NCBI RefSeq assembly: GCF_001598915.1
Contig: NZ_BDAP01000003.1
Span: 558,001 to 622,000, forward strand
Direction of reading: 5' to 3'
DNA length: 64,000 bases
Source: Williamsia muralis NBRC 105860
Lineage (GTDB): Bacteria > Actinomycetota > Actinomycetes > Mycobacteriales > Mycobacteriaceae
Both the position numbers and the translations under genes were made by a program. Below, piece after piece: positions 1 through 14,380 of the stretch (position 1 is the first letter of the stretch; each line of letters starts with the position of its first letter). Below the pieces are notes generated by a model, which did no database searches, was not told the origin of the DNA, and saw only the letters and a list, made by a program, of their open reading frames with translations.

Positions 1-179
1 AGTCGCCACGCCACCTCCGTGGCCTGCCGGTACAGTGCCCCGTAGGTCAGCGTCACCGTCTCGACACCCGAATCATCCAGGAAGACATACGCTTTCCTGT
101 CCGGATCAGAGTCTGCACGTTCACGCAGCAGCTGCGGCAACGTCGGCGATTCGGTAAGGGACCGTTGCGCTACATTCAC
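1..179 (-). CDS. Fatty-acyl-AMP ligase / acyl-CoA synthetase, N-terminus (partial, cut by window edge)
   Basis: Only the first 59 residues are inside the window. They contain the LxxLLRERAxxDPDRxAYxFLDD...TLTYGxL pattern that opens FadD/FAAL-type AMP-binding enzymes, which activate a free fatty acid as acyl-AMP for transfer to CoA or an ACP. The start is a GTG at 177-179 that overlaps the TGA of the thioesterase gene (GTGA), so translation is probably coupled. The stand-alone ACP four genes upstream makes an acyl-AMP ligase that loads this ACP the likely role. The catalytic core lies outside the window, so FAAL versus FACL cannot be decided from sequence here. Confidence 0.8.
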   Translation of the reverse strand, partial: MNVAQRSLTESPTLPQLLRERADSDPDRKAYVFLDDSGVETVTLTYGALYRQATEVAWR

Positions 180-916
180 TTCGCGGGCACCACGTTGTCG
201 AGCGCGCGGACCATGTGGGCAGCGATGGCGTCGCGGTGCTGCTGGTGGAAAAAGTGGTCCCCTGTGAACTCATGCGATCGAAATGCATTGTGTGAGTGTG
301 CTGCCCAAGCTCGAACTTCCTCGGGGTCAACCACCGGATCTCCTGTCCCGTAGAAGGCCGTGATCGGACACGGCAGTGTTGTTGTGCGCCCGAACGTGTA
401 CTTCTCGGACAGTTCCAGGTCGGCTCTGATCAGAGCCAGCACGTACTGGCGGAACTCGGGGCTCGTTGCCTCGATATCACCCATGCCCCCCATCGTGCGC
501 AGCGCTGTGATCAAGTCCGGTTCTGAGGCGTCGTGGATCGGGGTCCTACTCGGCGAACGATGGGGTGCACGCCGTCCCGACACAAACAGGTGGACAGGTG
601 CGGCACCGGCAGCACACAGCTCGTGCGCCAATTCGAACGCCACCAGTGCCCCCATGCTGTGGCCGTACAGCGCAACCCGTGAGTCGAGAAGACAGATGTC
701 GGAGACCAATGCACTGACCGCCTCGCCGACCCGGCGAAAGTGCGGCTCGGACGCTCGATCCTCTCGGCCAGGGAGTTGGGTTCGCACCACTGCGATGGTG
801 GTGGGGAACAGGCCGAGCCATCGATTGAAGGACGCCGCGCCACCGCCGGCGTGCGGGACGCATATCAAATGGACAGGGGAGTCGTCGGCGCCCCTCAACA
901 GCACGGACGTGGTCAT
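176..916 (-). CDS. Type II thioesterase (alpha/beta hydrolase)
   Basis: This 246-residue protein has the usual size and layout of TEII enzymes that clear or release acyl groups from carrier proteins. The VPHAGGG oxyanion-loop motif is at residues 20-26, the nucleophile elbow GHSMG at 85-89 (Ser87), and a GDHFF catalytic-His motif lies near the C-terminus. The start ATG overlaps the P450 stop (ATGA) and the stop overlaps the acyl-AMP ligase start. In this operon it most likely edits or releases the acyl-ACP product. A dedicated chain-terminating or condensing role is also possible because no NRPS or PKS module is visible. Confidence 0.9.
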   Translation of the reverse strand: MTTSVLLRGADDSPVHLICVPHAGGGAASFNRWLGLFPTTIAVVRTQLPGREDRASEPHFRRVGEAVSALVSDICLLDSRVALYGHSMGALVAFELAHELCAAGAAPVHLFVSGRRAPHRSPSRTPIHDASEPDLITALRTMGGMGDIEATSPEFRQYVLALIRADLELSEKYTFGRTTTLPCPITAFYGTGDPVVDPEEVRAWAAHSHNAFRSHEFTGDHFFHQQHRDAIAAHMVRALDNVVPAK

Positions 917-2205
917 GCCGCCTCATCGATCAGTCGAACCGGGAGCTGGGAGAGCCCGCGGACGATCAAACTGTCTGTCTGCCAGTCGAAGTGCTCGGTC
1001 ACCAGTTCCAGGCGCCGTCCGGAATCGCCGAAGAGAACGCCGATCGCAACCTCCGCCTGTAGCCGCGCGAGGAGGCCGCCGAGACAGCCGTGCATGCCGT
1101 GACCGAACGCGAGGTGCCGCTGACCGGTGCGGGTCAAGTCGAACTCATCTGGTTTCTCGAACACAGCGGGGTCTCTGTTCGCAGCCCCGATACAGAGCAG
1201 TATCTGGTCGCCGGCTTCCACCGCGCTCCCGCCGATCTCGACTCCGCGGGTGGCGACTCGTTTGGTCATCTGTAGCGGGCTCTGGAAGCGCAGGGTCTCT
1301 GCCACCGCAGCGCTTGCCAGGGACCGGTCCGACGTCAGCAGGTTTTGTTGCTCGGGGTGCTGCAACAGGGCCAGCACAGCGTTCCCGATCAGTGACTTGG
1401 TGGTCTCGTTGCCGGCGACAAAACACATGATGCACAGAAAGACGATCTCCTCGGATGCGAAGGCGTCGCCCCCTGAGGTCTTCGCGGCCAGTAGATTGCT
1501 GATCAGGTCCGTGCCGGGATGCGCTTTGCGGTGAGCCACCAGGTCGTCGAACGCAGTGGTGAACTCCTCCACCACGTCGCACACGCGACTGAAGACCGCG
1601 GCACTCATCAGGCCTGGTTCCAGCAGGAACCGGATATCCCGAGTCCACGGCCCGACCTGTGCACGAATGCTCTCCGGAACGTCCATCCAGTCACACATCA
1701 CGGTCACGGGCAAAGGTGCGGCATAGTCACCGATGATGTCCATGCCGTCGTGCCGCGTCTGCTCGAACAACTTCTGCGCGACACCGACAATTCGCGGCCG
1801 TAGCGAGGCGACAGCTTTACTGCTGAACGCCTGATTGATCAGGCCGCGTAACCGCGCGTGGTCCGGATTGTCGGTGAACACCAGCGACTTCTCGCCCAGC
1901 CGCTCGATCCGCGCAACGTTGCTCTGCGACAGACGATCTGCTTGCCGATTCACCAATTGTGGTATCACCGCTGAGCTGAACGTCCGGTCCATCAACACCG
2001 ATTCGACATCTGCATGTCGGGTTAGCACCCACATACCCAGGGTCCTGTGCGGTGCCGCTTGCTGTTGAAGGGTGCGGTACTGACGATACGGATCGTCGCG
2101 AAACGCGGCGCTGAACGGATTGAACCGTGGTACGGCCCGAACGGCGCCGGGGGGAGTGACGGAGGTCGGACCTCCGCCAGCTACCGATGATGTGGTGCCG
2201 GTCAT
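913..2205 (-). CDS. Cytochrome P450
   Basis: The 430-residue protein is a complete soluble bacterial class I P450. The I-helix AGNETT is at 264-269, the K-helix ExxR (ETLR) at 303-306, and the heme loop FGHGMHGCLGG at 367-377 with Cys374 as thiolate ligand. No ferredoxin or reductase is encoded nearby, so electrons must come from elsewhere. It overlaps the genes on both sides by 4 nt, which ties it to the ACP-based lipid pathway. Hydroxylation or further oxidation of the ACP-bound or released acyl chain is the natural inference, but the substrate cannot be read from sequence. Confidence 0.93.
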   Translation of the reverse strand: MTGTTSSVAGGGPTSVTPPGAVRAVPRFNPFSAAFRDDPYRQYRTLQQQAAPHRTLGMWVLTRHADVESVLMDRTFSSAVIPQLVNRQADRLSQSNVARIERLGEKSLVFTDNPDHARLRGLINQAFSSKAVASLRPRIVGVAQKLFEQTRHDGMDIIGDYAAPLPVTVMCDWMDVPESIRAQVGPWTRDIRFLLEPGLMSAAVFSRVCDVVEEFTTAFDDLVAHRKAHPGTDLISNLLAAKTSGGDAFASEEIVFLCIMCFVAGNETTKSLIGNAVLALLQHPEQQNLLTSDRSLASAAVAETLRFQSPLQMTKRVATRGVEIGGSAVEAGDQILLCIGAANRDPAVFEKPDEFDLTRTGQRHLAFGHGMHGCLGGLLARLQAEVAIGVLFGDSGRRLELVTEHFDWQTDSLIVRGLSQLPVRLIDEAA

Positions 2206-3107
2206 CTCGACACCCCGCCGAAGTGGCCGTCGGCATACGGCCGTAGAACCAGGCGCAGGAGACAGATCTTGTTCATCCGGAAGCCGATTGCGGACATCTT
2301 CAGGTACCGCTCGTACCGAGCAACCACGTCCTCACCGACGAGGGCGTTGGCTTCCTCGCGACGGGCGCGAAGCCGCTGAGCCCACTGTTCGCAGGTCCAG
2401 GCGTAGTCGCGTCGGCCGTTGGCAACCGACTGCACCTCGAACAATCCGTCGGCGGCGCTGACTATCTCAGTCAACGTCGGAAGGTCGGCGTCGGGAAAGA
2501 TCTCCTGTTGCATGAACGAATTGGCATCGCTCCGGGACATGTTCGCGTATGCGATGGTCTGCAGCGACAGCGTCCCGTCATTGTCGAGCCAGGTGCGGCA
2601 CCGGGAGAAGAACTCGCGGTATATCCCGATCTTCTCCGTCGGGGTGTCGTCTGGCCGGGCGAAATGCTCGAACGCACCGATGGAGATGATTCCGTCGAAA
2701 CGATCATCGGGCGCGAAGTCCATCCAGTTCGTGGTGCGCACATCCACGCCGCGTAGGGCGAGCTCCCGAATGTGTTGAGTTTGAGCCTCACTCAACGTCA
2801 GGCCCACCGCACGCGTCACGCCGTACTCCACCGACGCCTGCTCGAGTATCGCGCCCCATCCGCATCCCACATCGAGGATCGAATGCGCAGTGTCCGCCCG
2901 CACCGCATCGAGGTGGAATTGGAGTTTGCGTTGCTGCGCGACATCGAGTGTGTCCGTTGCGGCAGTGGGCATGGCGCACGAGTACGACAGCGACGAATCC
3001 AGCCAGAGCCCGTAGAAATCGTTGCCGACGTCGTAGTGATGACGAATGGCGCGCGTGGCGGCGGACTTCCGCTCCTCTCCGGCGATCTCGTCGACCCGGG
3101 CGATCAC
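2202..3107 (-). CDS. Cyclopropane-fatty-acyl synthase-like SAM methyltransferase
   Basis: The 301-residue protein has the CFA/CMAS fold: HHYDVGNDFYGLWLD at 23-37 (lipid and SAM cap), LDVGCGWG at 78-85 (SAM loop), and SIGAFEHF at 143-149 containing the Glu-His pair typical of mycolic acid cyclopropane synthases. The length matches CMAS enzymes (about 290-300) rather than E. coli Cfa (about 380). Such enzymes add the SAM methyl carbon to a cis double bond, giving a cyclopropane, methyl branch or exomethylene. Its place between an ACP and a P450, with a desaturase upstream, suggests that it acts on the double bond made by the desaturase. It overlaps the ACP and P450 genes by 4 nt each. Confidence 0.92.
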   Translation of the reverse strand: MIARVDEIAGEERKSAATRAIRHHYDVGNDFYGLWLDSSLSYSCAMPTAATDTLDVAQQRKLQFHLDAVRADTAHSILDVGCGWGAILEQASVEYGVTRAVGLTLSEAQTQHIRELALRGVDVRTTNWMDFAPDDRFDGIISIGAFEHFARPDDTPTEKIGIYREFFSRCRTWLDNDGTLSLQTIAYANMSRSDANSFMQQEIFPDADLPTLTEIVSAADGLFEVQSVANGRRDYAWTCEQWAQRLRARREEANALVGEDVVARYERYLKMSAIGFRMNKICLLRLVLRPYADGHFGGVSR

Positions 3108-3370
3108 AGTCGCACGGACCTCTCGTGGACGTATCCGGCCACTGCCCGGAGTGTCGGATTGTCGAACAGGGCCTCTGGCGTTACCTCGACCCCGAAATGT
3201 CCTTCGACGTCGATGAGTAGAGACACCGCCAGGGCCGAGTCGATGCCAAGCCGGTCGAAGGTCGCGTCGGGATTCACTCTGTCACCCGGCACTCCCAAGA
3301 TGTTGCCGACGTAGTCCTGGCACCAACTGACAATCTCGTCGTTGCGAGGGTTCGAACTCTTGTCACTCAT
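3104..3370 (-). CDS. Stand-alone acyl carrier protein
   Basis: This 88-residue ACP has the phosphopantetheine site GIDSA with Ser45, preceded by the usual DxxFxxLGIDS context. It is acidic and contains no other domain. It is embedded by 4-nt overlaps between the desaturase and the CFA-like methyltransferase. It is therefore probably the dedicated carrier on which the acyl-AMP ligase loads a fatty acid and on which tailoring happens, rather than the primary fatty-acid-synthesis ACP. Confidence 0.95.
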   Translation of the reverse strand: MSDKSSNPRNDEIVSWCQDYVGNILGVPGDRVNPDATFDRLGIDSALAVSLLIDVEGHFGVEVTPEALFDNPTLRAVAGYVHERSVRL

Positions 3371-4344
3371 GCCGGCACTCCACTCGTCGAGGTGTCACAG
3401 GTGTTGTCGGGGATGCGTTTTGCTGCCTTACGTTCGTCGGACGGTAGGCCGACATCCCAGACGAGTCCGCACGCTGCCAGCAACCTGATGAGCCAGTAAC
3501 CCGGGTCCAACCGGTACCAGTCCAATCCGAACGAAGCCGACTCGGGGAAAGCGTGGTGGTTGTTGTGCCAGGATTCGCCCAGAGTCACAAGGGCGAACAC
3601 CCCGCCGTTGCGGCTGTTCTCCCTCGACGCGTAAGGCCGCGTACCGAACATGTGCAGGAAGGAGTTGATGGCCCAGACGATGTGCTCGAGGACGAACATC
3701 CGGACCAACCCACCCCACAGGAGCCCACTGATCACCCCGGTCCAGCTCTGGTACACCAAACCGCCGATCACGGCGGGCAGGACGAGACCCAAGGCAACCC
3801 AGTAGTAGTACTGGCGCGCGACGCGGACAAGGGCACGATTCTTGATGAGGTCCGGTGCGTAGTGGACGACATTCGGATATTCGTGTCGACGCATCCACAG
3901 GAAGTGTGAGTGCATCAGACCTCGGAGACGTCCCTTGACGTCGGAACCATAAAGGTTGGGGGAGTGGGGGTCTCCGTCCCGGTCACTGCATTCATGGTGT
4001 CGGCGATGCAGGGCGACCCACGAGACCACTCCTCCTTGACCCGCCATGGATCCGAGGATCACCAGCGCGGTGATCACCGACTGCTTCGCCTTGAAGGTGC
4101 GATGAGTGAAGAGCCGGTGGTAACCAACGGTGATTCCCAGGCCCGTCAGCAACCAGAGCGAGAAGAACAAGACGAGCTCGGTGAGTCCGAGGGGGTGTAC
4201 GAAGAGGAACGCCAGCGCCGCTAGGGTTCCGACGATCGGGAGGATGTCGAACAGCAGAAAGTGCCGACGTTGCAGCCGGTGCAGATACGCATTGCTCACC
4301 GTCTTGGTTCGCGGGGCCTGCGGTGCGCGGGGACTGTCGGTCAT
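3367..4344 (-). CDS. Membrane-bound acyl desaturase (delta-9 / FADS type)
   Basis: The 325-residue integral membrane protein carries the three histidine boxes of di-iron acyl desaturases: HRLFTH at 76-81, HRRHH at 113-117 and HNNHH at 260-264, with hydrophobic hairpins between. GYHRLFTH and the GESWHNNHH context place it with acyl-CoA/acyl-ACP delta-9-like desaturases. Relatives work on ACP-bound chains in polyyne clusters, where they introduce double or triple bonds. The start codon is ATG at 4344, 12 nt after the GNAT stop, and the stop overlaps the ACP start (ATGA). Here it probably desaturates the acyl-ACP before methyl transfer. Confidence 0.92.
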   Translation of the reverse strand: MTDSPRAPQAPRTKTVSNAYLHRLQRRHFLLFDILPIVGTLAALAFLFVHPLGLTELVLFFSLWLLTGLGITVGYHRLFTHRTFKAKQSVITALVILGSMAGQGGVVSWVALHRRHHECSDRDGDPHSPNLYGSDVKGRLRGLMHSHFLWMRRHEYPNVVHYAPDLIKNRALVRVARQYYYWVALGLVLPAVIGGLVYQSWTGVISGLLWGGLVRMFVLEHIVWAINSFLHMFGTRPYASRENSRNGGVFALVTLGESWHNNHHAFPESASFGLDWYRLDPGYWLIRLLAACGLVWDVGLPSDERKAAKRIPDNTCDTSTSGVPA

Positions 4345-4356
4345 CTGGTTCCCTGC

Positions 4357-4971
4357 CTACGCGGACCGAAAGATGGGATACAGGCTGGGACCGCCGGGAA
4401 GTGCGATCTCGCCGCCGATTCGCTTCGATCCGAGACGTTCCCATAGCCGGAGGCTGCGCAGCGACGAAGCCTCGGCGTACACCCCGAAACCGTGCGTGAC
4501 ACGGAGTTCACGGAAGGCTCCGATCAACATCTCGCGCGCTCCGGTGCCGCGGGTTTCCGGTCGGATCGCCGCGTACAACGCGTGAACGTGCAGCGGCAGA
4601 TCAGAGGGGTGGTGCGCATCGAGAGTCTGCATGAGCGTGCTGACCTTGGGACCGCACGGTCCGCATGCCTGTTCCAACTCGGCCAGGACCGCGATGTCGT
4701 CCTCTTCGCTCGATGCCTCTGTCCCCGACCAGACGAGCACGCCGTCATAGGACGCCGTCGCCGCGACGGCACCCCCGTTGTCGAGCAGCTGCCGTGTGGT
4801 GATGTCGAAGAACGCATCCAGGTAACGCGCCCGCTCCGGGACATCCTCCGGGATGGCCCATTTGATGACCGGGTCGTCGGCGAAGGCGCACGACAGCGTG
4901 GCGACGACTGCCTCGAGGTCGGGGTCCGAGGTGACTATGGGATCAGTTGATGAAGGTTGAGCAATGGTCAT
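4357..4971 (-). CDS. GNAT-family N-acyl/acetyltransferase
   Basis: The 204-residue protein has the GNAT core. The acyl-CoA pyrophosphate loop is seen as RPETRGTGAREMLIGA near residues 137-152, followed by YAEASSLRSLRLWERLG, the usual helix-4 region. I chose the ATG at 4971 because it overlaps the decarboxylase stop (ATGA) and gives a normal GNAT N-terminus; the frame stays open upstream only inside the decarboxylase gene. The neighbour makes an amine, so this enzyme could acylate that amine using acetyl-CoA or the cluster's acyl-ACP. The donor and acceptor are not determined by sequence. Confidence 0.85.
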   Translation of the reverse strand: MTIAQPSSTDPIVTSDPDLEAVVATLSCAFADDPVIKWAIPEDVPERARYLDAFFDITTRQLLDNGGAVAATASYDGVLVWSGTEASSEEDDIAVLAELEQACGPCGPKVSTLMQTLDAHHPSDLPLHVHALYAAIRPETRGTGAREMLIGAFRELRVTHGFGVYAEASSLRSLRLWERLGSKRIGGEIALPGGPSLYPIFRSA

Positions 4972-6395
4972 GGAACCAGAGGCCTTTCGGTGGTGTCGGT
5001 GTATGCCGTGATGATTGCCGCTGCGCAGGCGTCTATGTCCTCGGCAGTGGTCTGCCAGTTGCACACCGACAGCCGCAACGTGGGGGTGCCACGCCAGACG
5101 GTGGGACTTGCCCAGCCCGTGCCACCGCGTTGCAGGGCTTCGACGATGTGGTCGAGACGAATCGAAGGATCATGAGGGTCGTCGGTGTCGAATACGACCA
5201 GCACCTGATTCAGTACCACGTCGTTGACTATCGAGATCCCATCGACGAGTACCAACTGATCGGCCAATCGCGTTGCCAGCGAACAGCATCGATCGATCAA
5301 CTCGGCAACACCACGTGTTCCGAGGTGCCGCAACGTGGACCACAACACCAATCCACGGGCACGGCGAGACAGATCAGGTGTGTAGTCGGCGGGATCGCGG
5401 GCACCATCGGGTGCGACGGTGAGATAGTCGGCAGTCGTGCGCAGCGCGGCGCGATGGGCCTCGGGATCGGCGCAGAAGACCAAACCGCAGTCGTAGGGCA
5501 CGTTGAGCCACTTGTGAGCGTCTGTGGCCCACGAATCGGCCGACGCCAAACCCTCGACATGTTGTCGCGCAGTAGCACTCGCGGCCGCCCACATTCCGAA
5601 GGCGGCATCGAGATGCACCCATCCGTCCCGTGCATGCGCGAGTTCGGTGATGATGTTTAACCGGTCGACCGATCCGGAGTCGACGTTCCCCACCTGACCG
5701 CAGACGATCAAGGGCCCGGTTGTGTTCGCGAGAGTCGCTTCCAGTGCCGGAATCGACATCCGGCCCTGATCGTCCACATCCACGGGGTGAATCTGCCCGG
5801 CCATGCCGAGAAGCCGAAGCGCCCGATAGACGGTCGTGTGGCAGCCGCGGCTGACCAGCACCCGGGGCACCGGAGCGCCGAACAGACCGTGGCGCTCCAC
5901 ATCCCACCCGGCCCTGGCCAGCACGGCGTGGCGGGCGGCGGCCAAGCCGCTGAGGTTGGCCATGGCGCAACCGGAGGTGATACCGGTCGATGTGCCCTCC
6001 GGTAGGCCGAACATGTCGACCAGCCACCGCGCCACCGTCTCCTCGACAACTGACGCTGTCGGACTGGTTGCGTAGAGCGCGCCGCACTGATCCCACACAG
6101 AGGTGACCCATTCGGTGGCTATGGCCACCGGGTATGCGCCTCCCATGACAAAGCCGAGAAATGTCGGAGCACCTGAATGCAGCAGTCCGGGTTCACCCTT
6201 GGTGAACAGCTCGCCGAGCACGGACCACGGGTCCAGACCCTGGTCCGGTAGTGGCCCGGCGAAGGAGGCCTCCAGCTCGGCGCGGGCCGTCACACGCTCG
6301 GAGTTGTCGTCGGCCAGATAGTTGATGCTGTAGTCGCACACTGCGCGCAGCAAGTTGTCGATGTCGGTGGCAGAAGCGCTCTGTAGTGTCCTCAT
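4968..6395 (-). CDS. PLP-dependent (group II) amino-acid decarboxylase
   Basis: The protein has about 475 residues and the fold-type-I decarboxylase hallmarks: HLDAAFGMWAAAS (PLP-contacting His/Asp region) and the Schiff-base motif DAHKWLNVPYDCG. It belongs with the aromatic amino acid / diaminobutyrate / tyrosine-type decarboxylases; substrate identity is not readable. The start is set at ATG 6395 (GGAA-type ribosome site; length matches the paralogue at 18910), but ATG 6455 would add a short Arg-rich extension. It lies 94 nt downstream of the UgpE-like permease gene and overlaps the GNAT gene by 4 nt, so it may be the first gene of the lipid-amine block. Confidence 0.92.
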   Translation of the reverse strand: MRTLQSASATDIDNLLRAVCDYSINYLADDNSERVTARAELEASFAGPLPDQGLDPWSVLGELFTKGEPGLLHSGAPTFLGFVMGGAYPVAIATEWVTSVWDQCGALYATSPTASVVEETVARWLVDMFGLPEGTSTGITSGCAMANLSGLAAARHAVLARAGWDVERHGLFGAPVPRVLVSRGCHTTVYRALRLLGMAGQIHPVDVDDQGRMSIPALEATLANTTGPLIVCGQVGNVDSGSVDRLNIITELAHARDGWVHLDAAFGMWAAASATARQHVEGLASADSWATDAHKWLNVPYDCGLVFCADPEAHRAALRTTADYLTVAPDGARDPADYTPDLSRRARGLVLWSTLRHLGTRGVAELIDRCCSLATRLADQLVLVDGISIVNDVVLNQVLVVFDTDDPHDPSIRLDHIVEALQRGGTGWASPTVWRGTPTLRLSVCNWQTTAEDIDACAAAIITAYTDTTERPLVP

Positions 6396-6489: not shown

Positions 6490-7389
6490 TCACTTGAGAC
6501 CGCTTCGCACGAAGGCGTTGACGATGTGGCGCTGCAGGATGACATAGAGAACGAAGATCGGCAGGCAGGCCAGACCGGCCAGAGCCATCATCGGCCCCCA
6601 CTGATCGCCTTCGGTGCCCATGAAACTCCGCAGGCCGAGTTGTAAGACGTCGTTGCTGGATTGGAGTACCACTGCGGGCCAGAAGTACTCGTTCCAGGAG
6701 TTGATGAACAACAAGATGGCCAGCGCCGCCAACGCCGGGCGCAGGTTCGGAACCACGACTGTCCACAGGATCGACCACGAGGACCGTCCGTCCATCCGTG
6801 CCGCTTCGATCAGTTCCTTCGGGAACCCGGACATGTGCGTGCGCATCATCAGGACGGCGAGCGCTGAACTGAGAGTTGGGACAACCACCCCGGACAGTGT
6901 GTTGAGCAGCCCCAACTGGTTCAGCAGAACGTAATTCGGCAGCATGGTGACCTGGTAAGGCACCAACCACGTGCCGACGAACGCCAGGTACAGCAGGCCC
7001 TGAAACTTGAACCGGTAGACCGCAAACGCGTACGACGCGAGGATCGCGATGAGAAGCTGGCCGCAGGTAGATGCAAGCGCAACACCAAAAGTGTTGAGCA
7101 TCAACCTCGTCACATCGACTTTGTCGGCAGCGTCGAAATAGTTCTCGACCGACAGCGGCCACGGCAATGGCGTCAAAGAGCTGACGTCGCCGGGTCGTCG
7201 GAGCGACGTCGCGACCAGCCAGTAGATCGGGAACATACACGCGAGTGCGATGACCGCCAGTGTGAGGTGTCCCCAGATGCGCGCGAGCACAACACGTCCT
7301 GCGCCCGCGGTCGAGGCGGGCAATGTCGGCAGGGGAGGACGGACAGGCTCCGCCGTGTCCTCTGCCTTCAACATGCTGTCAGTTGTCAT
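6490..7389 (-). CDS. ABC transporter permease, UgpE/MalG type
   Basis: The 299-residue protein has six predicted membrane spans and the cytoplasmic EAA loop (EAARMDGRSSWSILWTVVVP) that docks the ATPase. ATG 7389 is the likely start, giving an 11-nt overlap with the upstream permease gene; ATG 7374 is an alternative. The C-terminal FINSWNEYFWPAVVL segment is typical of carbohydrate/glycerophosphodiester (CUT1) MalG-like subunits. It pairs with the adjacent MalF-like subunit. Confidence 0.92.
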   Translation of the reverse strand: MTTDSMLKAEDTAEPVRPPLPTLPASTAGAGRVVLARIWGHLTLAVIALACMFPIYWLVATSLRRPGDVSSLTPLPWPLSVENYFDAADKVDVTRLMLNTFGVALASTCGQLLIAILASYAFAVYRFKFQGLLYLAFVGTWLVPYQVTMLPNYVLLNQLGLLNTLSGVVVPTLSSALAVLMMRTHMSGFPKELIEAARMDGRSSWSILWTVVVPNLRPALAALAILLFINSWNEYFWPAVVLQSSNDVLQLGLRSFMGTEGDQWGPMMALAGLACLPIFVLYVILQRHIVNAFVRSGLK

Positions 7390-8332
7390 GGAAGGTGATC
7401 CGTTCCGACAGCCAGACCAAGAAGCCGGCGACAACGCCGAATCCGAGGAACAGGACGATGCCTGCCGCCGCGCTCAGGCCGGCATTGAATGAGTGGAATC
7501 CGTAGTCCCAGAGGAGGTAATAGATGTTTGTGGTCGCACCGGCCGGCCCACCCTGGGTCAGGGTGTCGATCAGCGGGAAACTCCACTGGGCGCTGAGCAG
7601 GATGGTCATGAGAGTGAGGAACACGAGAGTCGGCGACAGCAGTGGCAGGGTGATCCGCCGGCCGATCTGGAGCCGGGTTGCTCCGTCGAGCTGTGCGGCC
7701 TCGTCGTAGTCCGAGCTGATGCCGGCGAGACCGGCGGCCACTGCCAGCACCGCGAATCCGATAAGGTGCCATCCGGTGATGACGATGATCGCCAGTTGCG
7801 CCGTGTTCTTGTCGTAGATCCAGTTGTGATCGGTTCCCAAGACCCTGTTGACGATTCCGCCACTGGGATCGAGCAACCAACGCCACACCGCTGCCCCTGC
7901 TACCGGCGCCACCAGGAAGGGCGCGAAGATGAACCCCTGGTAGATCCGCGAGCTTCGTACCGAGACACCCCGCATCGCGAACCCGATCACCACCGGAACC
8001 ACCACGGTGAACGGCAGCAGACCGATGATGAGTACAACCGTCAGCCACACGGCATCACCGAGTGCCGGCAGTTCGAACAACTGCTCGTAGTTGTCGGTGC
8101 CCACCGACTTCATGGGACTTGCCGGAAGAAGGTTCCATGACACGGTGGACAACTGCACCGCTTGGACGAGCGGCCGGTAGGTCCACACCACCAAGAGGAT
8201 CAACGCCGGGGTGAGGTACAGATAGGGCACGACGCCCCGCGTGAGCCGCGACCACCGCCGGGACCGCACAGGCGGTACCGGGGTGGTCGTCGAACTGTGT
8301 ACGGGCGTCGGTGTCTCGACCGGAACGAACAT
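7379..8332 (-). CDS. ABC transporter permease, UgpA/MalF type
   Basis: The 317-residue permease has an N-terminal cytoplasmic Pro/Thr-rich stretch, six membrane spans and an EAA-type loop (YDEAAQLDGATRLQIGRRITLPLL). It is the MalF/UgpA-like partner of the following permease. The start lies 6 nt after the phosphoesterase stop. The whole importer set (solute-binding lipoprotein, two permeases, ATPase) is present in this run, so the transporter should be complete. Confidence 0.92.
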   Translation of the reverse strand: MFVPVETPTPVHSSTTTPVPPVRSRRWSRLTRGVVPYLYLTPALILLVVWTYRPLVQAVQLSTVSWNLLPASPMKSVGTDNYEQLFELPALGDAVWLTVVLIIGLLPFTVVVPVVIGFAMRGVSVRSSRIYQGFIFAPFLVAPVAGAAVWRWLLDPSGGIVNRVLGTDHNWIYDKNTAQLAIIVITGWHLIGFAVLAVAAGLAGISSDYDEAAQLDGATRLQIGRRITLPLLSPTLVFLTLMTILLSAQWSFPLIDTLTQGGPAGATTNIYYLLWDYGFHSFNAGLSAAAGIVLFLGFGVVAGFLVWLSERITFHDN

Positions 8333-8338
8333 CGTGGA

Positions 8339-9202
8339 TCAGTTCGCGTTCGGGGTGAGCGACCACAGTCGTTCGAGTGCCACCGACTGCGGTTCGCTGT
8401 ACACATCCTCCACGCCGACGACGTCGACGGAAGTGGCAACCGCAGATTCACCGAACAGGTCGATTCGGCTGAACCCGAAACCGACACCCGCCCGGTGCCT
8501 TCCCTGTGGCGGTACCGGATCGGTGCGGTACGACAGCGGCGGGCCGATCCAGACTGGGATGCCCGATATCGCCGAGGCGCCCGTGTAGTGCGCGTGGCCG
8601 CAGAGGATCATCCGCACATCCGAGCCGGCGATGACCGACTCGAGCGCGCTCGGATCCGTCAGCCGGAGAAAGTCGACCGTGGCGACCGGCGACCGAACGG
8701 GCGGATGGTGCATCACCAGCAGTGTTCCGCGCGGGGCCCTGTCCTCCAATACCTTTGCCAGCCAGTCCAGCTGGACATCCTCGAGACTGCCGTCATGACG
8801 CCCCGGCGTGGTGCTGTCGAGTACCACAATGCGCAGTCCACCGATGTGATGGACCGCATCGTACGGCGCGCCGAGGTCGGTCGACCCATTGCGACTCAAG
8901 TCCAGGCCGATGCGGAACCCGGCGCGGTCATCGTGATTTCCCATCGCGTAACACAGTGTTGCGCCGAGTCTCGCCGCGGTGGGCTCCAACATCGTTCGCA
9001 GCGTTCGGTAAGCCTCGGGGGACCCTGCGTCAGCGAGATCGCCGGACACGATGATCGCGTCCACCGACCCTTCCCACGCGTCCAGGTGGTCGAGAACCTT
9101 ACGCAGATTCCGAGTTGTGTCCATCATCCCGTGCATCAGATCGCCGCCGCCGCTCAAATGCGTGTCGGTGAGCTGGATGACGGTGTGGTCGGGCCCGGTC
9201 AT
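8339..9202 (-). CDS. Calcineurin-like phosphodiesterase (GpdQ/Icc-like)
   Basis: The 287-residue metallophosphoesterase contains the ordered metal-binding motifs DTH (near residue 14), GDLAD, GNHDD, HHPP and GHAH. It resembles the Icc/GpdQ branch that hydrolyses cyclic nucleotides or glycerophosphodiesters. It sits inside the ABC importer operon: its ATG overlaps the solute-binding-protein stop (ATGA), and the UgpA gene follows after 6 nt. Because Ugp systems import glycerophosphodiesters, cleavage of an imported glycerophosphodiester into glycerol-3-phosphate plus an alcohol is the favoured role; cAMP hydrolysis is the alternative. Confidence 0.88.
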   Translation of the reverse strand: MTGPDHTVIQLTDTHLSGGGDLMHGMMDTTRNLRKVLDHLDAWEGSVDAIIVSGDLADAGSPEAYRTLRTMLEPTAARLGATLCYAMGNHDDRAGFRIGLDLSRNGSTDLGAPYDAVHHIGGLRIVVLDSTTPGRHDGSLEDVQLDWLAKVLEDRAPRGTLLVMHHPPVRSPVATVDFLRLTDPSALESVIAGSDVRMILCGHAHYTGASAISGIPVWIGPPLSYRTDPVPPQGRHRAGVGFGFSRIDLFGESAVATSVDVVGVEDVYSEPQSVALERLWSLTPNAN

Positions 9203-10560
9203 GACACCGGCAGAAGCGTGTTCGCCTGCTCCTGCGCGGCCGTCAAGGCAGTCGCCGGATCGGCACCCTGGAATACCGCGGACTCCACGGCAGACATCAT
9301 GCCGTCGCGAATCTGCAGATATTCATTGCCGGGCATCGAGATCCACGGTTCCATCGACTTCAGCTGCTCCAGGTTCGGCTCGAGGAGCGGGTTCTGGGCC
9401 GCCCACTCCTGCAGTCCGGCCGGGTCGTCCATCAAACCGGTGCGCAGCGGGAGATAGCCGATGCCACTGGAGATCTTGACGTAGGCCTGTTCGCTGGTGA
9501 GGAACTTGATCAGCTCCCACGAAGCACGCTGTTTGGCGGGGTCCTGCGAGAAGATGAACAGCGAGGCACCGGAGTTGGTCGGCACGACGGGCTTGTCGCC
9601 GAAGCTCGGCATCGTCGTGGATCGCAGGTCCCATTTGTCTTTGGCGCCCTTGACGAACTGGTCCTGAATGGCGCTCGTCTCCAAGAGCATTCCCATCTCG
9701 CCGCGAGCGAATGCTTCATAGCCCTGCTTTTGTGTCAGCTTCGGAGTGGCTCCCGAGTTGACCATCTGCTGTGCCATGCTGACCACCTCGACCGCCGCCG
9801 GATCGGCGAACGTCAGCGTGTCCCGGTTCTCGGAGATCACCCGGCCACCATTCGAGCGCACCAGGCTCTGGAAGCACCAGTCCTTGGCGGTCTTGGTCAG
9901 GCAGTCGATGTAGGCGCCGCCCTTGCCCGTCTTGTCGGCAATGGTCTTGGCAGCGACCGCAACTTCGTCCCAGGTACGCGGCGGGTTGTTCGGGTCCAGG
10001 CCGGCTTGCTGGAAAAGTGTTGCGTTGTAGTAGAACACCGGCGTCGAGAAGACGAACGGAACGCCGTATGTCTGGCCGTCCCAGTCGCTCAAGGTCCGGG
10101 CAGTCGGAGCGAACGGATGCGTGGTGCCCTCGAAGTTCTTGTCCACTGCCTCTTCGCCGACCAATTGATCCAGCGACTTTGCCTGGAGTTGATTCACCGT
10201 GAAGTCGAGATCGGAGAATCCCAGCTGTGCAACGTCAGGGGGATTGCCGGCGGTCATCTGATTGCGGATGCTGGAAATGGTGTCGGTGGCCGGGTTGGGA
10301 CTGTTTCCAGCCGGCTTCTGCGGGGTGACGGTGATGTTCGGATGCTCTTTGGAGAAGTCTGCGAGCAAGCTGTTGAACGTGTCCGTCCACGCACCCGCCA
10401 GTCCGTAGTTGTAGCTCTCGAAGACGATCGAGACCTTCTGGTCGTCCGCCAATTCGGGAATGGCTGAGGTTTCTGTTTCGTCCGAGGTACTCGACAAACA
10501 ACCGGTGAGCGTCAACAGTGACGCGATCAACGGCACGGCGATCTTGAGTCTGGCCTTCAC
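9199..10560 (-). CDS. ABC transporter solute-binding lipoprotein, UgpB-like
   Basis: The protein has about 453 residues. GTG at 10560 is chosen because it follows an AGGAG ribosome site and gives a proper lipoprotein signal: positive start, hydrophobic core, then LTLTGC lipobox. The mature part is a cluster-B extracellular solute-binding protein with ITVTPQKPAGN, DVAQLG and repeated hinge motifs found in glycerol-3-phosphate/sugar binding proteins. It lies between the ATPase gene (10 nt upstream) and the phosphodiesterase (4-nt overlap). Glycerophosphodiesters such as glycerophosphocholine are the most likely cargo by analogy with mycobacterial UgpB; a sugar cannot be excluded. Confidence 0.9.
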   Translation of the reverse strand: MKARLKIAVPLIASLLTLTGCLSSTSDETETSAIPELADDQKVSIVFESYNYGLAGAWTDTFNSLLADFSKEHPNITVTPQKPAGNSPNPATDTISSIRNQMTAGNPPDVAQLGFSDLDFTVNQLQAKSLDQLVGEEAVDKNFEGTTHPFAPTARTLSDWDGQTYGVPFVFSTPVFYYNATLFQQAGLDPNNPPRTWDEVAVAAKTIADKTGKGGAYIDCLTKTAKDWCFQSLVRSNGGRVISENRDTLTFADPAAVEVVSMAQQMVNSGATPKLTQKQGYEAFARGEMGMLLETSAIQDQFVKGAKDKWDLRSTTMPSFGDKPVVPTNSGASLFIFSQDPAKQRASWELIKFLTSEQAYVKISSGIGYLPLRTGLMDDPAGLQEWAAQNPLLEPNLEQLKSMEPWISMPGNEYLQIRDGMMSAVESAVFQGADPATALTAAQEQANTLLPVS

Positions 10561-10570
10561 GGCAGTGCTC

Positions 10571-11737
10571 CTACGTAAAAGAGAGTTGAGGATGGACGGG
10601 TCGTGCCGCCGGGTGCTGCCACTGCAGCCGCCGGCCGTTTTCGGGATCGAAGAGATGAAGATCGGAGCTGTCCGCGACGAGAGTGATCTCCGATCCGATG
10701 GTGATGTCGCGGACGCCGCCGACCCGGGACACCCGGGCGCACAACGCGACCGAGTTGACCGAGCAGTGCAGCAGGACATCGCCACCGAGGTTTTCGGTGA
10801 GCGTCACCACGGCAGGAAGTCGCACCACGTTGCTGGTGGGGTCCTGGACGCGTTCCTCGAAGCGGTCGTCCAGTCGGAGACGCTCGGGCCGGACACCGAG
10901 GGTCAAACGCGCGGTGTCCACCTCTGCCTGCGTGGCCTCGATGCCGAGGGGTACAACCGACTTTCCGACGTGTGCGACCAGTCGCCCGGCTTGGACCACG
11001 ATGTCGACGTCTATGAGGTTCATCGGCGGGGCGCCGAGAAAGGCCGCGACGAACACCGACTGGGGGGTGTCGTACAGCTCCTCCGGAGTACCGACCTGCT
11101 CGACGCGCCCCTTGTTCAGCAGCGCAATTCGGTCAGCCATCGTCATTGCCTCGACCTGGTCATGGGTGACGTACAGGAAGGTCTTGTTGACGCGCTTGTG
11201 CAGTTCGATCAGTTCGGTGCGGGTGACCGCACGCAGTCGTGCGTCCAGATTCGACAGTGGTTCATCCATCAGGAACGCGCCGGGATCGCGAACCATGGCC
11301 CGTGCCAGTGCGACACGCTGTCGCTGACCGCCCGACAACTGTCCCGGTCGCCGGTCGAGTAGTTCCGTCAGGCCCAGCGATGCGGCCACACGTTCGACCG
11401 TCTGTTTTGCCTCTTGCTTGGCCACTTTTGCGGTACGCAAGGGGAAAGCAATGTTCTTTGCCACCGTCAGATGTGGGTACAGCGCGTAACTCTGGAACAC
11501 CATCGCCAGATTGCGCTCTCGGGGTGGTACTTCCGTGACATCGGTGCCATCGATCACCACGCTTCCCTCGGTCGGTGTCTCCAGACCGGCGATGATGCGC
11601 AGCAGAGTCGATTTGCCGCATCCACTCGGTCCCAGGAGCACCATGAACTCGCCGCTCGGTACGGTCAGATCAATCGACTCGAGTACCGTCGTCCCGTCGA
11701 ATCGCTTGGTCACCCCATCGAGGAACAGTTCGCTCAT
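10571..11737 (-). CDS. ABC transporter ATPase, UgpC/MalK type
   Basis: The 388-residue ATPase has Walker A GPSGCGKST, signature LSGGQRQR and Walker B FLMDEPLSNLDARLR, followed by a C-terminal TOBE/OB regulatory region of the MalK family. The start is ATG 11737, which overlaps the stop of the alpha/beta hydrolase (ATGA). It energises the two permeases downstream. The coupling to a hydrolase gene suggests the importer serves breakdown products made by that enzyme. Confidence 0.94.
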   Translation of the reverse strand: MSELFLDGVTKRFDGTTVLESIDLTVPSGEFMVLLGPSGCGKSTLLRIIAGLETPTEGSVVIDGTDVTEVPPRERNLAMVFQSYALYPHLTVAKNIAFPLRTAKVAKQEAKQTVERVAASLGLTELLDRRPGQLSGGQRQRVALARAMVRDPGAFLMDEPLSNLDARLRAVTRTELIELHKRVNKTFLYVTHDQVEAMTMADRIALLNKGRVEQVGTPEELYDTPQSVFVAAFLGAPPMNLIDVDIVVQAGRLVAHVGKSVVPLGIEATQAEVDTARLTLGVRPERLRLDDRFEERVQDPTSNVVRLPAVVTLTENLGGDVLLHCSVNSVALCARVSRVGGVRDITIGSEITLVADSSDLHLFDPENGRRLQWQHPAARPVHPQLSFT

Positions 11738-12645
11738 TCGACGGGCCCGGGTGTGGCGAGCTCGCCGGTCTCGATCCACTGTCGCACCACGGGCGCCAGC
11801 AGTCGCGAATCGGCCAGCCAATCGACGTGACCGCGATGGGTGATCGAAGAGTCGCCTTCGATGTGCCAGCGAGTTACTTTGGCAGAAGACAGCTTCCGCA
11901 CCAGGAAGTCGACATTCGATTTCGGCCCGAGGGTGTCGTCGTCCAGCGAGATGGCCAGCACCGGGAGGTCGAGCTTGCTGATGAGCTCGTCATAGTTCAG
12001 CTTGGTGCCCTTCGGCCTGTAACGGGCGGTCAACGAATGCCGCGACCAGTCGATCATCACTCCGCCGGCCATCGGACCAGGTATCAGGATCCCGCCCGGC
12101 CAGGATCCCTTGACTCGAGCCACCAGCCCGATCCACTGGATGGTCGACAGCGCCTCGATCCAGCGTCGAGGCCCGAATGCGCGCCAGAAGACGGTGCCGG
12201 TCCCGATGATCGTGACAGAGGCGACCGGGCCCTGAATGCCTTGTGCAGCGGTTCGCAGCAGAGCCAGCTGGCCACCGAGGCTGTGTCCGAAGAGGTGTAT
12301 CCGGGTCGCCTCAAATCGTTGACAGATAGCGTCGATGATCGCGGGGAGATCTTCTTCGAGCATCTCTCGGTAACCGAAGTCGGGACAGTCCGCGAGTGCC
12401 GGCCGCGCTTCACCTTGCGCACGGAGATCACAGGTGGCCACCTGCACGCCAGATTTGTTGAGTGCTTTGATCAAGGGCGCATAGTGCTTGGCCTTCATCG
12501 CCATCGCGGGGAGGATCAGGACAACGGGTGCCTGGGCGTCGGTCGTGGGCCAGACACGCACGGTGATCGTGATGCCCGGTGCCGACTCGACGACGATCGA
12601 CTCTTGCTGTTTGAACGCGTCCGGACGCCCGGTTGTCTGCGTCAT
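11734..12645 (-). CDS. Alpha/beta hydrolase (lysophospholipase-like)
   Basis: The 303-residue protein has the nucleophile elbow GHSLGG, a VVLILPAMAMKAKHY N-terminal strand-loop, and a C-terminal catalytic His region (DSSITHRGHVDW). ATG 12645 abuts the hotdog-protein stop as TGATG, and the stop overlaps the ATPase start. The serine-aminopeptidase/monoglyceride-lipase-like subfamily is most similar by eye. Because a Ugp-like importer follows immediately, removal of acyl chains from a (lyso)phospholipid or related ester is a reasonable but unproven role. Confidence 0.82.
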   Translation of the reverse strand: MTQTTGRPDAFKQQESIVVESAPGITITVRVWPTTDAQAPVVLILPAMAMKAKHYAPLIKALNKSGVQVATCDLRAQGEARPALADCPDFGYREMLEEDLPAIIDAICQRFEATRIHLFGHSLGGQLALLRTAAQGIQGPVASVTIIGTGTVFWRAFGPRRWIEALSTIQWIGLVARVKGSWPGGILIPGPMAGGVMIDWSRHSLTARYRPKGTKLNYDELISKLDLPVLAISLDDDTLGPKSNVDFLVRKLSSAKVTRWHIEGDSSITHRGHVDWLADSRLLAPVVRQWIETGELATPGPVE

Positions 12646-13175
12646 CAGACGACCTCTCCGTGCACCACATCGCACACGTATTCGAACGTGAACTTCGCAA
12701 CGGTGACGTCGTCGGCGTTCAAGACCACCGCTTTGGCCGAGATCTCGTGACGGCCGGTGCTGACCGACGACGTGATGACCCTGAGTTCGCGCTCGTCGAC
12801 CGTCGCGACGGTTCGCAGGACACCCATCGCAGGCTTGCGGTACGACGCCGTGGCGGACTTGAGCACGAGACGTTCGATTGTGTTCAGCTTGGTCGCCGCG
12901 GCGCCGACAAATGCGGCCGCGCCTGCGATATCCGCCGCCGTGTAGATCGCGCCCGCATGCACGGTACCCATGTGGTTCAAACCCGATGCCTCGCCACCTA
13001 TTTCGACGATGGCGTGTTCTGGGGTCAGTACGGTGATCGTGGTGCCCACATGCTTGCCGAAGGGCACGATCTCGTCAGAGCGTGATCGGAGCGCTTCGAA
13101 GTCGGGATCGGCGTAGTCGATGTTGCCGAAAGCCGCGCCGAAGCTGCCGACAGGAACTGTGGTGCTGGTTGACAT
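12645..13175 (-). CDS. Hotdog-fold thioesterase-like protein (DUF4442/PaaI-like)
   Basis: The 176-residue protein begins at ATG 13175 behind a clear AGGAG site. It contains NHMGTVHAGAIYTAADIAG, the hotdog central-helix motif of PaaI/DUF4442 acyl-CoA thioesterases, and a long C-terminal strand set. It is 23 nt downstream of the acyl-CoA dehydrogenase stop and directly joined to the hydrolase, so it probably belongs to the same transcript. It would hydrolyse an acyl-CoA thioester. Confidence 0.85.
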   Translation of the reverse strand: MSTSTTVPVGSFGAAFGNIDYADPDFEALRSRSDEIVPFGKHVGTTITVLTPEHAIVEIGGEASGLNHMGTVHAGAIYTAADIAGAAAFVGAAATKLNTIERLVLKSATASYRKPAMGVLRTVATVDERELRVITSSVSTGRHEISAKAVVLNADDVTVAKFTFEYVCDVVHGEVV

Positions 13176-13198
13176 GATTCTCCTGGAGTTGATGTTGG

Positions 13199-14380
13199 TC
13201 AGTTGGGTAGCCGGCGTAGTGCACGCCGGGCAATCGACCAGCGCAGCACCTCCGTCGGTCCCTCGTAGATCCGAAATGCCCTGGCCTCCACCAGAAACCT
13301 GGCCACAAGATGGTCCTCGCAGACGCCGAGCCCGCCGTGCAGCTGGACAGCACGATCGAGGATCCGCCACACAGCCTCTGCCACAAACGCTTTGGCCAGC
13401 GACGCGGCATGGCGTGCGTCAGAGGCAGCGGGCCCCTGAGCATCGATCACTTCCGCCGCCCGCCGGATCAGCCCCTGGCTCGCCGCAATGTCGATTTCGG
13501 TGTCCGCGATCATTGCCTGTGCAAAGCCGCTCTCCGCAATCGGTGATCCGAATGAGGTCCTTGTGGTCACATGCCGGCAGGCCAGGTGATGGGCCCGGAT
13601 CGCGACGCCCAGCCAATTGACGCAGAAGATGACACGGGAGGGAGCAAGTCGGGCCTGCGCGTAGACCATCGCGCTGCCGACCTCACCGAGGCGCGCATCA
13701 TCACCGACCTCGCAGTCGGCGAACCGAACAATGCAGTGTCCGCCGGGTACACATCGGTCGAGCGTGGTCATCCGTTCCACGACCTCGACACCGGGGTTGT
13801 CGGCATCGACGATGAACATCGTGGCGCCGTGCGCAGTGTCGGCAATACAGATGAAAAACGCCGCACCATCGGCTCCGGTGGTGAAGTGCTTGTCTCCGTT
13901 GATGATCCATCCGGTCGGCGTCTGTAGCGCAGAAGTCATGAGCATCGACGGATCAGAGCCCGCGCCGGGCGCAGGTTCTGTCATCGCAATCGAAGATCGA
14001 ACCGTGCCGGACGCCAGGGGAGCGAGGTACCGCTCCTTCTGCTCCGGTGTTCCGGCGTGCTCCAAGAGATGAATGTTGCCGTCGTCCGGTGCCGAGCAGT
14101 TCACCGAGATCGGACCGAGGAGGCTGGTGCCCGCCACCTCCATCACGTCGATCAGTTCAGTCAAACTCAGATCCAACCCACCATGTTCACGCGAGGACAG
14201 CGGGCCGAAAACTCCTGCAGCTCGCGCTTTTTCCTGGAGGTCGAGACGCATGTCGTCGGTTACCCGCAGGTTGTTGCGGATGACGTCGATCTCGACCGGG
14301 ATCACTTCGTCCGTGATGAACGTCTGCATCCGCGCCTTCAGTGACGCTGGTGCCTGTGGTGGCGTCGTGGTGGCGGTCAT
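13199..14380 (-). CDS. Acyl-CoA dehydrogenase
   Basis: The 393-residue flavoprotein has the usual layout: an N-terminal helical domain, a central beta domain with MTEPAPGAGSDPS (FAD contact) and GDKHFTTGA, and a C-terminal helical domain with QLHGGLGV. The motif IYEGPTEVLRWSIARR follows at the C-terminus; the active-site Glu of this family is in or near that segment. It is the 5'-most gene of the 14-kb minus-strand run, so its upstream region should hold a main promoter. Its substrate is unknown. Confidence 0.93.
   Translation of the reverse strand: MTATTTPPQAPASLKARMQTFITDEVIPVEIDVIRNNLRVTDDMRLDLQEKARAAGVFGPLSSREHGGLDLSLTELIDVMEVAGTSLLGPISVNCSAPDDGNIHLLEHAGTPEQKERYLAPLASGTVRSSIAMTEPAPGAGSDPSMLMTSALQTPTGWIINGDKHFTTGADGAAFFICIADTAHGATMFIVDADNPGVEVVERMTTLDRCVPGGHCIVRFADCEVGDDARLGEVGSAMVYAQARLAPSRVIFCVNWLGVAIRAHHLACRHVTTRTSFGSPIAESGFAQAMIADTEIDIAASQGLIRRAAEVIDAQGPAASDARHAASLAKAFVAEAVWRILDRAVQLHGGLGVCEDHLVARFLVEARAFRIYEGPTEVLRWSIARRALRRLPN

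What the first reader, a model, noticed from the sequence alone, without database searches (positions are those of the whole stretch)
1..6395. Eight-gene lipid-amine biosynthetic block with no PKS or NRPS
Seen: decarboxylase, GNAT, membrane desaturase, free ACP, CMAS-like methyltransferase, P450, TEII and an acyl-AMP ligase start are in one minus-strand run. Six of the seven junctions are 4-nt ATGA/GTGA overlaps (the GNAT-desaturase junction is 12 nt). Known: FAAL+ACP+desaturase sets occur in polyyne-type pathways, and CFA/CMAS enzymes modify cis double bonds. Inference: a fatty acid is loaded on the ACP, desaturated, cyclopropanated or methylated, oxidised, then released or joined by the GNAT to the amine made by the decarboxylase. 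I know of no described cluster with this exact gene content.
Basis: partly seen in the sequence, partly recalled or inferred. Interest (0 to 1): 0.87.

Follow-up and report, generated by a model that had tools for sequence, protein, structure and literature searches.

The report
PUFA-type lipid cluster with tailoring cassette
The eight genes are real, but they are one half of a larger gene cluster that also holds a PUFA-synthase-like polyketide machine just outside the window, and together they probably make an unusual modified lipid, perhaps capped with an amine.

Summary
The genes and junctions are as described. Left of the window the ligase is a full FAAL, followed by a ninth gene, a hotdog thioesterase. 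'No PKS' holds only inside the given coordinates: a convergent PUFA-synthase-like operon lies beyond the edge. DES-ACP-CMAS-P450-(TEII)-FAAL recurs in order in other genera and, on plasmids, in two phyla. Of 401 family genomes, 21 of 22 with this desaturase hold the Williamsia-type PfaD, against 10 of 379 without (kinship not corrected). Decarboxylase-GNAT lies directly behind PfaD in six other loci and heads the cassette in Williamsia and G740. A close relative lacks, as one 23.3-kb piece, both halves. Best reading: one cluster of three shuffled modules: FAAL/ACP acyl tailoring, a PUFA-type iterative PKS, and an amine-making, N-acylating pair. Substrates and product are inferred. The CMAS-like enzyme has Gln in 28 of 28 homologues where the five reference structures shown have His, so cyclopropanation should not be assumed. 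First reading partly supported; new variant of a known kind.

The parts
4968..6395 (-). PLP-dependent amino acid decarboxylase (DEC), substrate unknown
   Evidence: Pfam PF00282 E 1.9e-38; His, Asp and Lys positions kept in alignments with solved decarboxylases (their catalytic role is recalled)
4357..4971 (-). GNAT-type N-acyltransferase, coupled to DEC by a 4-nt overlap
   Evidence: no Pfam hit; phmmer to HPA2-like 2qec and puromycin N-acetyltransferase 7k09 at about 1e-6
3367..4344 (-). membrane fatty acyl desaturase (DES)
   Evidence: PF00487 E 1.4e-24; acyl-CoA desaturase 4ymk E 5.9e-28, histidine boxes aligned
3104..3370 (-). free acyl carrier protein
   Evidence: PF00550 E 1.2e-17
2202..3107 (-). 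CMAS-like SAM methyltransferase with Gln (SLQTI) where the LLHTI motif has His
   Evidence: PF02353 E 3.9e-65; Gln in 28 of 28 homologues, His in the 5 solved relatives shown of 21
913..2205 (-). cytochrome P450; second-best solved match is BioI (3ejb)
   Evidence: PF00067
176..916 (-). type II alpha/beta thioesterase (TEII)
   Evidence: PF00975 E 9.6e-36
1..179 (-). 5' part of FAAL; whole gene is C3:556338-558179 (613 aa); next on the same strand outside the window: hotdog thioesterase C3:555845-556357
6490..11821 (-). companion ABC importer (two permeases, metallophosphoesterase, solute-binding protein, MalK-type ATPase) upstream on the same strand; lies near PfaD in relatives
   Evidence: Pfam; linkage; 94 nt between the last permease stop and the DEC start
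11734..14380 (-). alpha/beta hydrolase (11734-12675) and acyl-CoA dehydrogenase (13199-14380), companions in several relatives
   Evidence: Pfam

Best explanation
The block is one arm of a larger lipid biosynthetic cluster (C3:540241-564395) made of three modules. (1) Acyl-ACP tailoring cassette: FAAL loads a fatty acid on the free ACP, the desaturase inserts a double bond, the CMAS-like enzyme adds a one-carbon unit at it, the P450 oxidises the chain, and the thioesterases edit or release it. (2) PUFA-synthase-like iterative PKS (PfaA KS-AT-ACP-KR-DH, PfaC-like DH, PfaD ER) that builds or extends a polyunsaturated chain, most likely using the tailored acyl group as starter. (3) Decarboxylase plus GNAT: an amino acid is decarboxylated and the amine is N-acylated, most likely with the PKS-derived chain. 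Shown: gene content, family assignments, conserved order, co-occurrence, relocation of genes between the two operons, absence as one piece in a relative. Inferred: every substrate, the order of steps, use of the cassette product as starter, the amide product.
For: 21 of 22 cassette-bearing family genomes hold a Williamsia-type PfaD (at least 60% identity), against 10 of 379 others (Fisher 1.8e-26, not corrected for kinship; cassette in 7 genera). 13 of the 22 have the two within 20 kb and 15 within 45 kb. DEC-GNAT lies directly behind PfaD in R. opacus pRho-G13, G724, G922, G961, G774 and G888, but heads the cassette in 3 Williamsia and G740. A hydrolase gene (ABH) sits behind PfaD here and behind the cassette in five relatives. 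G302, 94.5-97.9% identical in the flanks, lacks C3:541157-564486 as one piece. The cassette also lies beside PKS or KS genes in Pseudonocardia alni and Polaromonas. The P450 resembles BioI; the ligase is FAAL-type.
Against: On Thalassospira, Tistrella and Sphingobium plasmids the cassette or its core occurs with no PfaD on the same plasmid (their chromosomes were not searched), and 10 of 31 PfaD genomes lack it, so the modules can work apart. G953 has the cassette without this PfaD. In G214 and G904 the two lie more than 400 kb apart. G971 has no FAAL within the 20 kb fetched on either side. The GNAT is in only 9 of the 32 PfaD- or cassette-bearing genomes searched for it. Its nearest solved relatives are acetyltransferases, so it may only acetylate the amine. 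Williamsia PfaA has a single ACP motif and no KS-CLF was seen in the operon's proteins. G302 lacks a further 2.4 kb to the right (hydrolase and acyl-CoA dehydrogenase), so its losses are not confined to the cluster.
Confidence: 0.6

Rival explanations
1. Two independent pathways share a lipid-metabolism island: the cassette makes one modified fatty acid or lipid, and the PUFA-type PKS (with or without DEC-GNAT) makes another.
For: Each half occurs without the other: PfaD without the cassette desaturase in 10 genomes; cassette on Thalassospira and Sphingobium plasmids that show no PfaD. Distances over 400 kb in G214 and G904.
Against: 21 of 22 co-occurrence, repeated close linkage with different gene orders, relocation of DEC-GNAT and ABH between the operons, absence as one piece in G302.
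Confidence: 0.25
2. One reading: the eight-gene operon alone makes an N-acyl amine from a cyclopropanated or methylated fatty acid, with no PKS.
For: The genes overlap or nearly touch in Williamsia and G740; no PfaA-like hit lies within the fetched 40 kb around the G740 cassette. In Sphingobium an ACP-CMAS-FAAL set sits beside a gene annotated in B90A as acyl-homoserine-lactone synthase (that such enzymes are N-acyltransferases of GNAT-like fold is recalled).
Against: DEC-GNAT sits behind PfaD in six other loci, including G774 with no cassette desaturase at 1e-70; G740 does hold the PfaD operon on another contig. His to Gln in the CMAS-like enzyme.
Confidence: 0.12
3. Alkyne or polyyne pathway of the JamABC kind: the desaturase makes an alkyne on the ACP.
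For: FAAL + membrane desaturase + ACP is the JamABC core (passages of PMC8406139); a desaturase of a polyyne-like gene set on a Streptomyces goshikiensis plasmid is 39% identical.
Against: One desaturase only and no rubredoxin found among the nine genes; the polyyne core is described with two further desaturases, thioesterase and rubredoxin. A CMAS follows the ACP in all 19 loci, which fits an alkene better than an alkyne (inference).
Confidence: 0.05

Closest known systems
PUFA-synthase-like 'secondary lipid synthase' clusters (Shulse and Allen 2011, PMC3098273; section 7 and passages read)
   Same: PfaA-type PKS (TIGR02813, 1451 bits against a cut-off of 1010), DH protein, PfaD-type enoyl reductase in one operon
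   Different: no KS-CLF seen in the PfaC-like protein, one ACP motif in Williamsia (three in R. opacus); carries LysR, acyl-CoA ligase, FAD oxidoreductase, GDSL and the tailoring cassette; not assigned to any of the paper's types here
RerA iterative PKS of Rhodococcus erythropolis PR4 (PMC11563203, first of two parts read)
   Same: KS-AT-ACP-KR-DH order in a PUFA-type PKS of a related genus
   Different: two ACPs and a PPTase-Y-TE partner protein; sequence not compared here
JamABC alkyne cassette and polyyne clusters (PMC8406139, passages)
   Same: FAAL, membrane desaturase and ACP genes together
   Different: here a CMAS-like enzyme and a P450 are regular members; no extra desaturases or rubredoxin
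Mycolic acid CMAS / CFA synthases
   Same: CMAS family, up to 132 bits to CmaA2 (1kpi)
   Different: Gln instead of His in the LLHTI motif in all 28 homologues examined; partner is a dedicated ACP gene
P450 BioI (3ejb)
   Same: second-best solved relative, 224 bits
   Different: BioI is recalled as cleaving acyl-ACP for biotin; cleavage here is untested

Membership tests
PUFA synthase (Pfa) type secondary lipid synthase | PfaA with KS, acyltransferase, ACP and KR | tested here: met
   TIGR02813 1451 bits, above its cut-off; KS, AT, PP-binding, KR and PS-DH in Pfam
PUFA synthase (Pfa) type secondary lipid synthase | tandem ACPs in PfaA | tested here: not met
   one ACP in Williamsia (Pfam; motif); three motifs in R. 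opacus. The paper says not all such clusters have multiple ACPs
PUFA synthase (Pfa) type secondary lipid synthase | PfaC with KS-CLF and two DH domains | tested here: not met
   the 693-aa PfaC-like protein shows only one FabA-like domain in Pfam; hence called PUFA-synthase-like, not a member of the canonical type
PUFA synthase (Pfa) type secondary lipid synthase | PfaD enoyl reductase | tested here: met
   PF03060 and PF21607 above cut-off, PfaD_N below its cut-off; 52-55% identity to plasmid genes annotated PfaD family (H42, H46)
JamABC-type acyl-ACP cassette | FAAL, membrane desaturase and free ACP together | tested here: met
JamABC-type acyl-ACP cassette | formation of a terminal alkyne | not testable with these tools
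   needs an enzyme assay; JamB itself was not compared
Polyyne cluster | two further desaturases and rubredoxin | tested here: not met
   one desaturase and no rubredoxin among the nine genes
FAAL | sequence closer to FAALs than to CoA ligases | tested here: met
   372 bits to FadD23, 302 to FadD32, 259 to FadD28 and 267 to a fatty acyl-adenylate ligase, against 100 or less for 4-coumarate-CoA ligases; the top two, 7r7e and 3kxw, are FAALs by recall only
FAAL | no CoA product; loads ACP | not testable with these tools
   needs an enzyme assay
Cyclopropane synthase (CMAS/CFA) | conserved active-site His of the LLHTI motif (role in bicarbonate binding recalled) | tested here: not met
   Gln in 28 of 28 homologues; His in the 5 of 21 solved relatives whose alignments were shown
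GNAT superfamily | similarity to solved GNATs and acyl-CoA loop | tested here: inconclusive
   about 1e-6 to two solved GNATs; loop reads RG[TS]G[AVS]R in the 6 aligned proteins, with Arg where Gly or Ala is usual (recalled rule); structure model unusable, pLDDT 37.8

The most novel reading that the evidence does not exclude
A transferable 'acyl-ACP tailoring cassette' (FAAL, ACP, desaturase, a His-to-Gln CMAS-like C1-adding enzyme, BioI-like P450), found in two phyla, supplies branched, oxidised starters to a PUFA-type iterative synthase. The finished polyunsaturated chain is released by a dedicated GNAT onto an amine made by its own decarboxylase, giving an undescribed class of N-acyl-amine PUFA-type lipids in Williamsia, Rhodococcus and their kin.
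Probability: 0.33. Interest if true: 0.74.

Novelty: new variant of a known kind. Interest (0 to 1): 0.58.

Why it matters
If true, it joins three lipid chemistries that I did not find described together (FAAL/ACP tailoring, PUFA-type iterative synthesis, amine capping), and gives a recurrent, natural mix-and-match set (with, without or with relocated decarboxylase-GNAT) plus a natural null in a close relative (G302) that make the product directly testable. The Gln seen in all 28 homologues asks what a CMAS-fold enzyme makes when that His is replaced.

Tried and rejected
Stand-alone eight-gene pathway: weakened by the PUFA-type operon next door and by DEC-GNAT behind PfaD in six other loci. 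Polyyne: missing genes. The GNAT as search marker in 298 genomes of the order gave, in the rows listed, only hits of 36% or less besides the window's own; the desaturase proved the better marker. DEC in 396 genomes of the phylum gave up to 51%; the 29 small loci fetched from other genomes (L085-L113) held no GNAT or DES hit in their flanks. GNAT structure prediction from a single sequence failed, so no fold search was made. Promoter scan of window 1-15000 found none where 2.5 were expected by chance, uninformative. RerA of PR4 was not compared at sequence level. Of 27 other PfaD-bearing genomes of the order searched for the desaturase (27 of the 40 besides the window's own), 17 had hits at 1e-40, all 46% or less, read as paralogues. 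The companion ABC importer was considered as part of the pathway: its binding protein lies within about 22 kb of PfaD in 7 of 7 genomes that have it (8 genomes picked by me), but its solute is unknown, and Williamsia G302 and G303 hold it without PfaD. The PfaD threshold (60% identity) was chosen after seeing the hits; with all 53 PfaD genomes at 1e-100 the table is 21 of 22 against 32 of 379. That searches used the same 401 genomes rests on equal counts and the same listed handles.
Full report
Where it is. The window is contig C3:558001-622000 of a 5.54-Mb genome. The one named locus found in genome contigs is Williamsia muralis BULT 1.1, whose GNAT is 98% identical (records of the window's own genome may be left out there). 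Nine genomes of the genus, the window's own included, were searched. I read on to the left of the window with stretches L003, L004 and L063.

Observation. The eight genes are there with the stated junctions. The ligase is complete outside the window (C3:556338-558179, 613 aa) and a ninth gene, a hotdog thioesterase (C3:555845-556357), overlaps it by 20 nt. Its 3' end faces a plus-strand operon: LysR 540241-541296, acyl-CoA ligase (FACS) 541380-543062, FAD oxidoreductase 543231-544466, GDSL esterase 544463-545068, PfaA 545098-551412 (KS, AT, ACP, KR, DH; TIGR02813 at 1451 bits against a cut-off of 1010), PfaC-like 551403-553484 (FabA-like DH), PfaD 553393-555042 and an alpha/beta hydrolase (ABH) ending at 555892. 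So the locus does hold a PKS, of the PUFA-synthase-like iterative kind.

Ligase type. The 15 best solved-structure matches (255-455 bits) include FadD23, FadD32, FadD28 and a fatty acyl-adenylate ligase; the top two, 7r7e and 3kxw, are named polyketide synthase and saframycin synthetase and are FAALs by recall. 4-Coumarate-CoA ligases in the list score 100 bits or less. In the 25 NCBIfam models shown, fatty-acid-AMP ligases come first after one PKS/NRPS model, all below their cut-offs. This is a FAAL by sequence; the loading itself is untested.

A recurring cassette. Plasmid searches with the desaturase and the CMAS-like protein gave the order DES-ACP-CMAS-P450-TEII-FAAL in Rhodococcus opacus pRho-G13, Pseudonocardia alni pPaSha1 and Thalassospira marina pCSC3H3, and shorter versions in Tistrella, in Polaromonas (with KS/PKS genes) and on two Sphingobium plasmids (ACP-CMAS-FAAL, in B90A beside an annotated acyl-homoserine-lactone synthase). 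In 401 genomes of the window's family the desaturase is found in 22 at 1e-70 or better. The weakest of these is 6.8e-152, so there is a clean gap. Of the 19 loci outside Williamsia, 19 keep DES-ACP-CMAS-P450 in order and 17 keep FAAL (one of the two misses is at a contig end). TEII was detected in 12 and the hotdog thioesterase in 15 of the 28 locus sets, so these look optional.

Link with the PUFA-type operon. In 401 genomes drawn the same way, PfaD hits of at least 60% identity occur in 31 (29 full, 2 partial). 21 of the 22 cassette genomes have one; of the 379 others, 10 do. Fisher's exact p is 1.8e-26; it ignores kinship, though the cassette genomes fall in 7 genera. Distances, for G810 (PfaA on the cassette contig): within 20 kb in 13 of 22, within 45 kb in 15, more than 400 kb in 2 (G214, G904), different contigs in 4 (two of them on cassette contigs under 11 kb), no such PfaD in 1 (G953).

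Decarboxylase and GNAT. The GNAT was found in 3 of 9 genus genomes and in 6 of the 29 other cassette- or PfaD-bearing genomes searched. In R. opacus, G724, G922, G961, G774 and G888 the order is PfaD-DEC-GNAT. In the 3 Williamsia and in G740 the pair heads the cassette, and G740's PfaD operon lies on another contig. G774 has no cassette desaturase at the threshold used. The ABH hydrolase likewise sits behind PfaD in Williamsia, but behind the cassette on the same strand in G214, G1011, G904, G909 and G929. Such movement between two operons is what one expects of parts of one pathway.

A natural null. Genome G302 of the same genus matches the window's contig at 94.5% over 19 kb left of C3:541156 and at 97.9% over 5.3 kb right of C3:564487, with 180 bases between. 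The 23.3 kb holding the PUFA-type operon, cassette and DEC-GNAT, and the last 140 bases of LysR, are missing as one piece. Most of LysR and the ABC importer remain; these accompany PfaD in relatives, so a loss in G302 is the simpler reading (inference). Against over-reading: it is one event in one genome, adjacency alone makes joint loss easy, and G302 also lacks about 2.4 kb further right (window 11782-14204, hydrolase and acyl-CoA dehydrogenase). Its binding-protein match is flagged with one TAG.

Details that bear on chemistry. The CMAS-like protein has Gln in place of the His of the LLHTI motif in 28 of 28 homologues from both phyla, two of them near-copies from Williamsia. The five solved relatives shown out of 21 have His: CmaA2, two bacterial CFA synthases, CmaA1 and UmaA. 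That the His helps hold a bicarbonate in CMAS enzymes is recalled; my paper search for it found nothing. I therefore prefer 'adds a one-carbon unit' to 'cyclopropanates'. Since it is conserved in cassettes without DEC-GNAT, its substrate is more likely the acyl chain than the amine. The P450's second-best solved match is BioI, 3ejb; that this is an acyl-ACP complex is recalled. The decarboxylase resembles tryptophan, DOPA, desferrioxamine-type and diaminobutyrate decarboxylases at about the same weak level, so its amino acid cannot be named.

Companions. Two permeases, a metallophosphoesterase, a binding protein and a MalK-type ATPase (window 6490-11821) lie upstream on the same strand, 94 nt from DEC. 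The binding protein lies within about 22 kb of PfaD in the 7 of 8 genomes that have it; in four of these (G214, G904, G929, G740) the cassette is elsewhere, so it goes with PfaD rather than with the cassette. Its solute is unknown; a glycerophosphodiester-like importer is only a guess.

Literature. In the listings of searches and in the passages I opened I saw no description of the cassette or of its joining with a PUFA-type synthase; the library lacks most subscription journals, so this is weak. Shulse and Allen 2011 (PMC3098273; section 7 and passages) list PUFA-like clusters in actinobacteria with unknown products. PMC11563203 (part 1 of 2) shows an iterative PKS of R. erythropolis with the same domain order making polyenes. 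PMC8406139 (passages) defines JamABC and polyyne cores. PMC11837247 (passages) reviews FAALs; 'cyclopropan' occurs 0 times in it. PMC13291983 (outline, abstract, one passage) and PMC12964715 (two passages) treat PUFA-synthase hybrids; 'desaturase' and 'decarboxylase' occur in neither main text. PMC7413640 and PMC5550956 (passages for the terms tried) had nothing on it.

Verdict. A real cluster, mis-bounded by the window edge. It looks like a PUFA-type secondary lipid system with a JamABC-like acyl-ACP tailoring arm and an amine cap; it is not a canonical Pfa or polyyne cluster. New variant of a known kind, interest 0.58.

Noticed in passing
window 18910-20328 +: A second PLP decarboxylase, 43% identical to the one in the block.
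   Followed up: partly
L207, L208, L209 (G302 C1): A close relative lacks 23.3 kb holding the whole biosynthetic part but keeps most of LysR and the ABC importer; its binding-protein match is flagged with one TAG.
   Followed up: yes
L125, L126 (Sphingobium plasmids): ACP-CMAS-FAAL next to a gene annotated in B90A as acyl-homoserine-lactone synthase: the cassette core may feed an N-acyltransferase there.
   Followed up: no
L120 (Streptomyces goshikiensis plasmid): Polyyne-like set of FAAL, three desaturases, ACP, hydrolase, rubredoxin and P450, with aminodeoxychorismate synthase and AMP-binding genes upstream.
   Followed up: no
G837, G810 and G975 loci (L163, L165/L182, L173): A second CMAS-like gene (about 29% identity) near a second FAAL, within 20 kb of the cassette, reading VSES where the cassette enzyme reads LQTI.
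   Followed up: no
L116, L123 (Thalassospira marina plasmid): The cassette is followed by a TauD-like dioxygenase, an aldolase, a Pnap_2097-family protein and an AMP-binding protein of about 1000 residues: a different downstream partner set.
   Followed up: no
L023 1501-3356 (G014): A distant GNAT (32%) lies beside a distant decarboxylase match (28%) on the same strand: perhaps a remote version of the pair.
   Followed up: no
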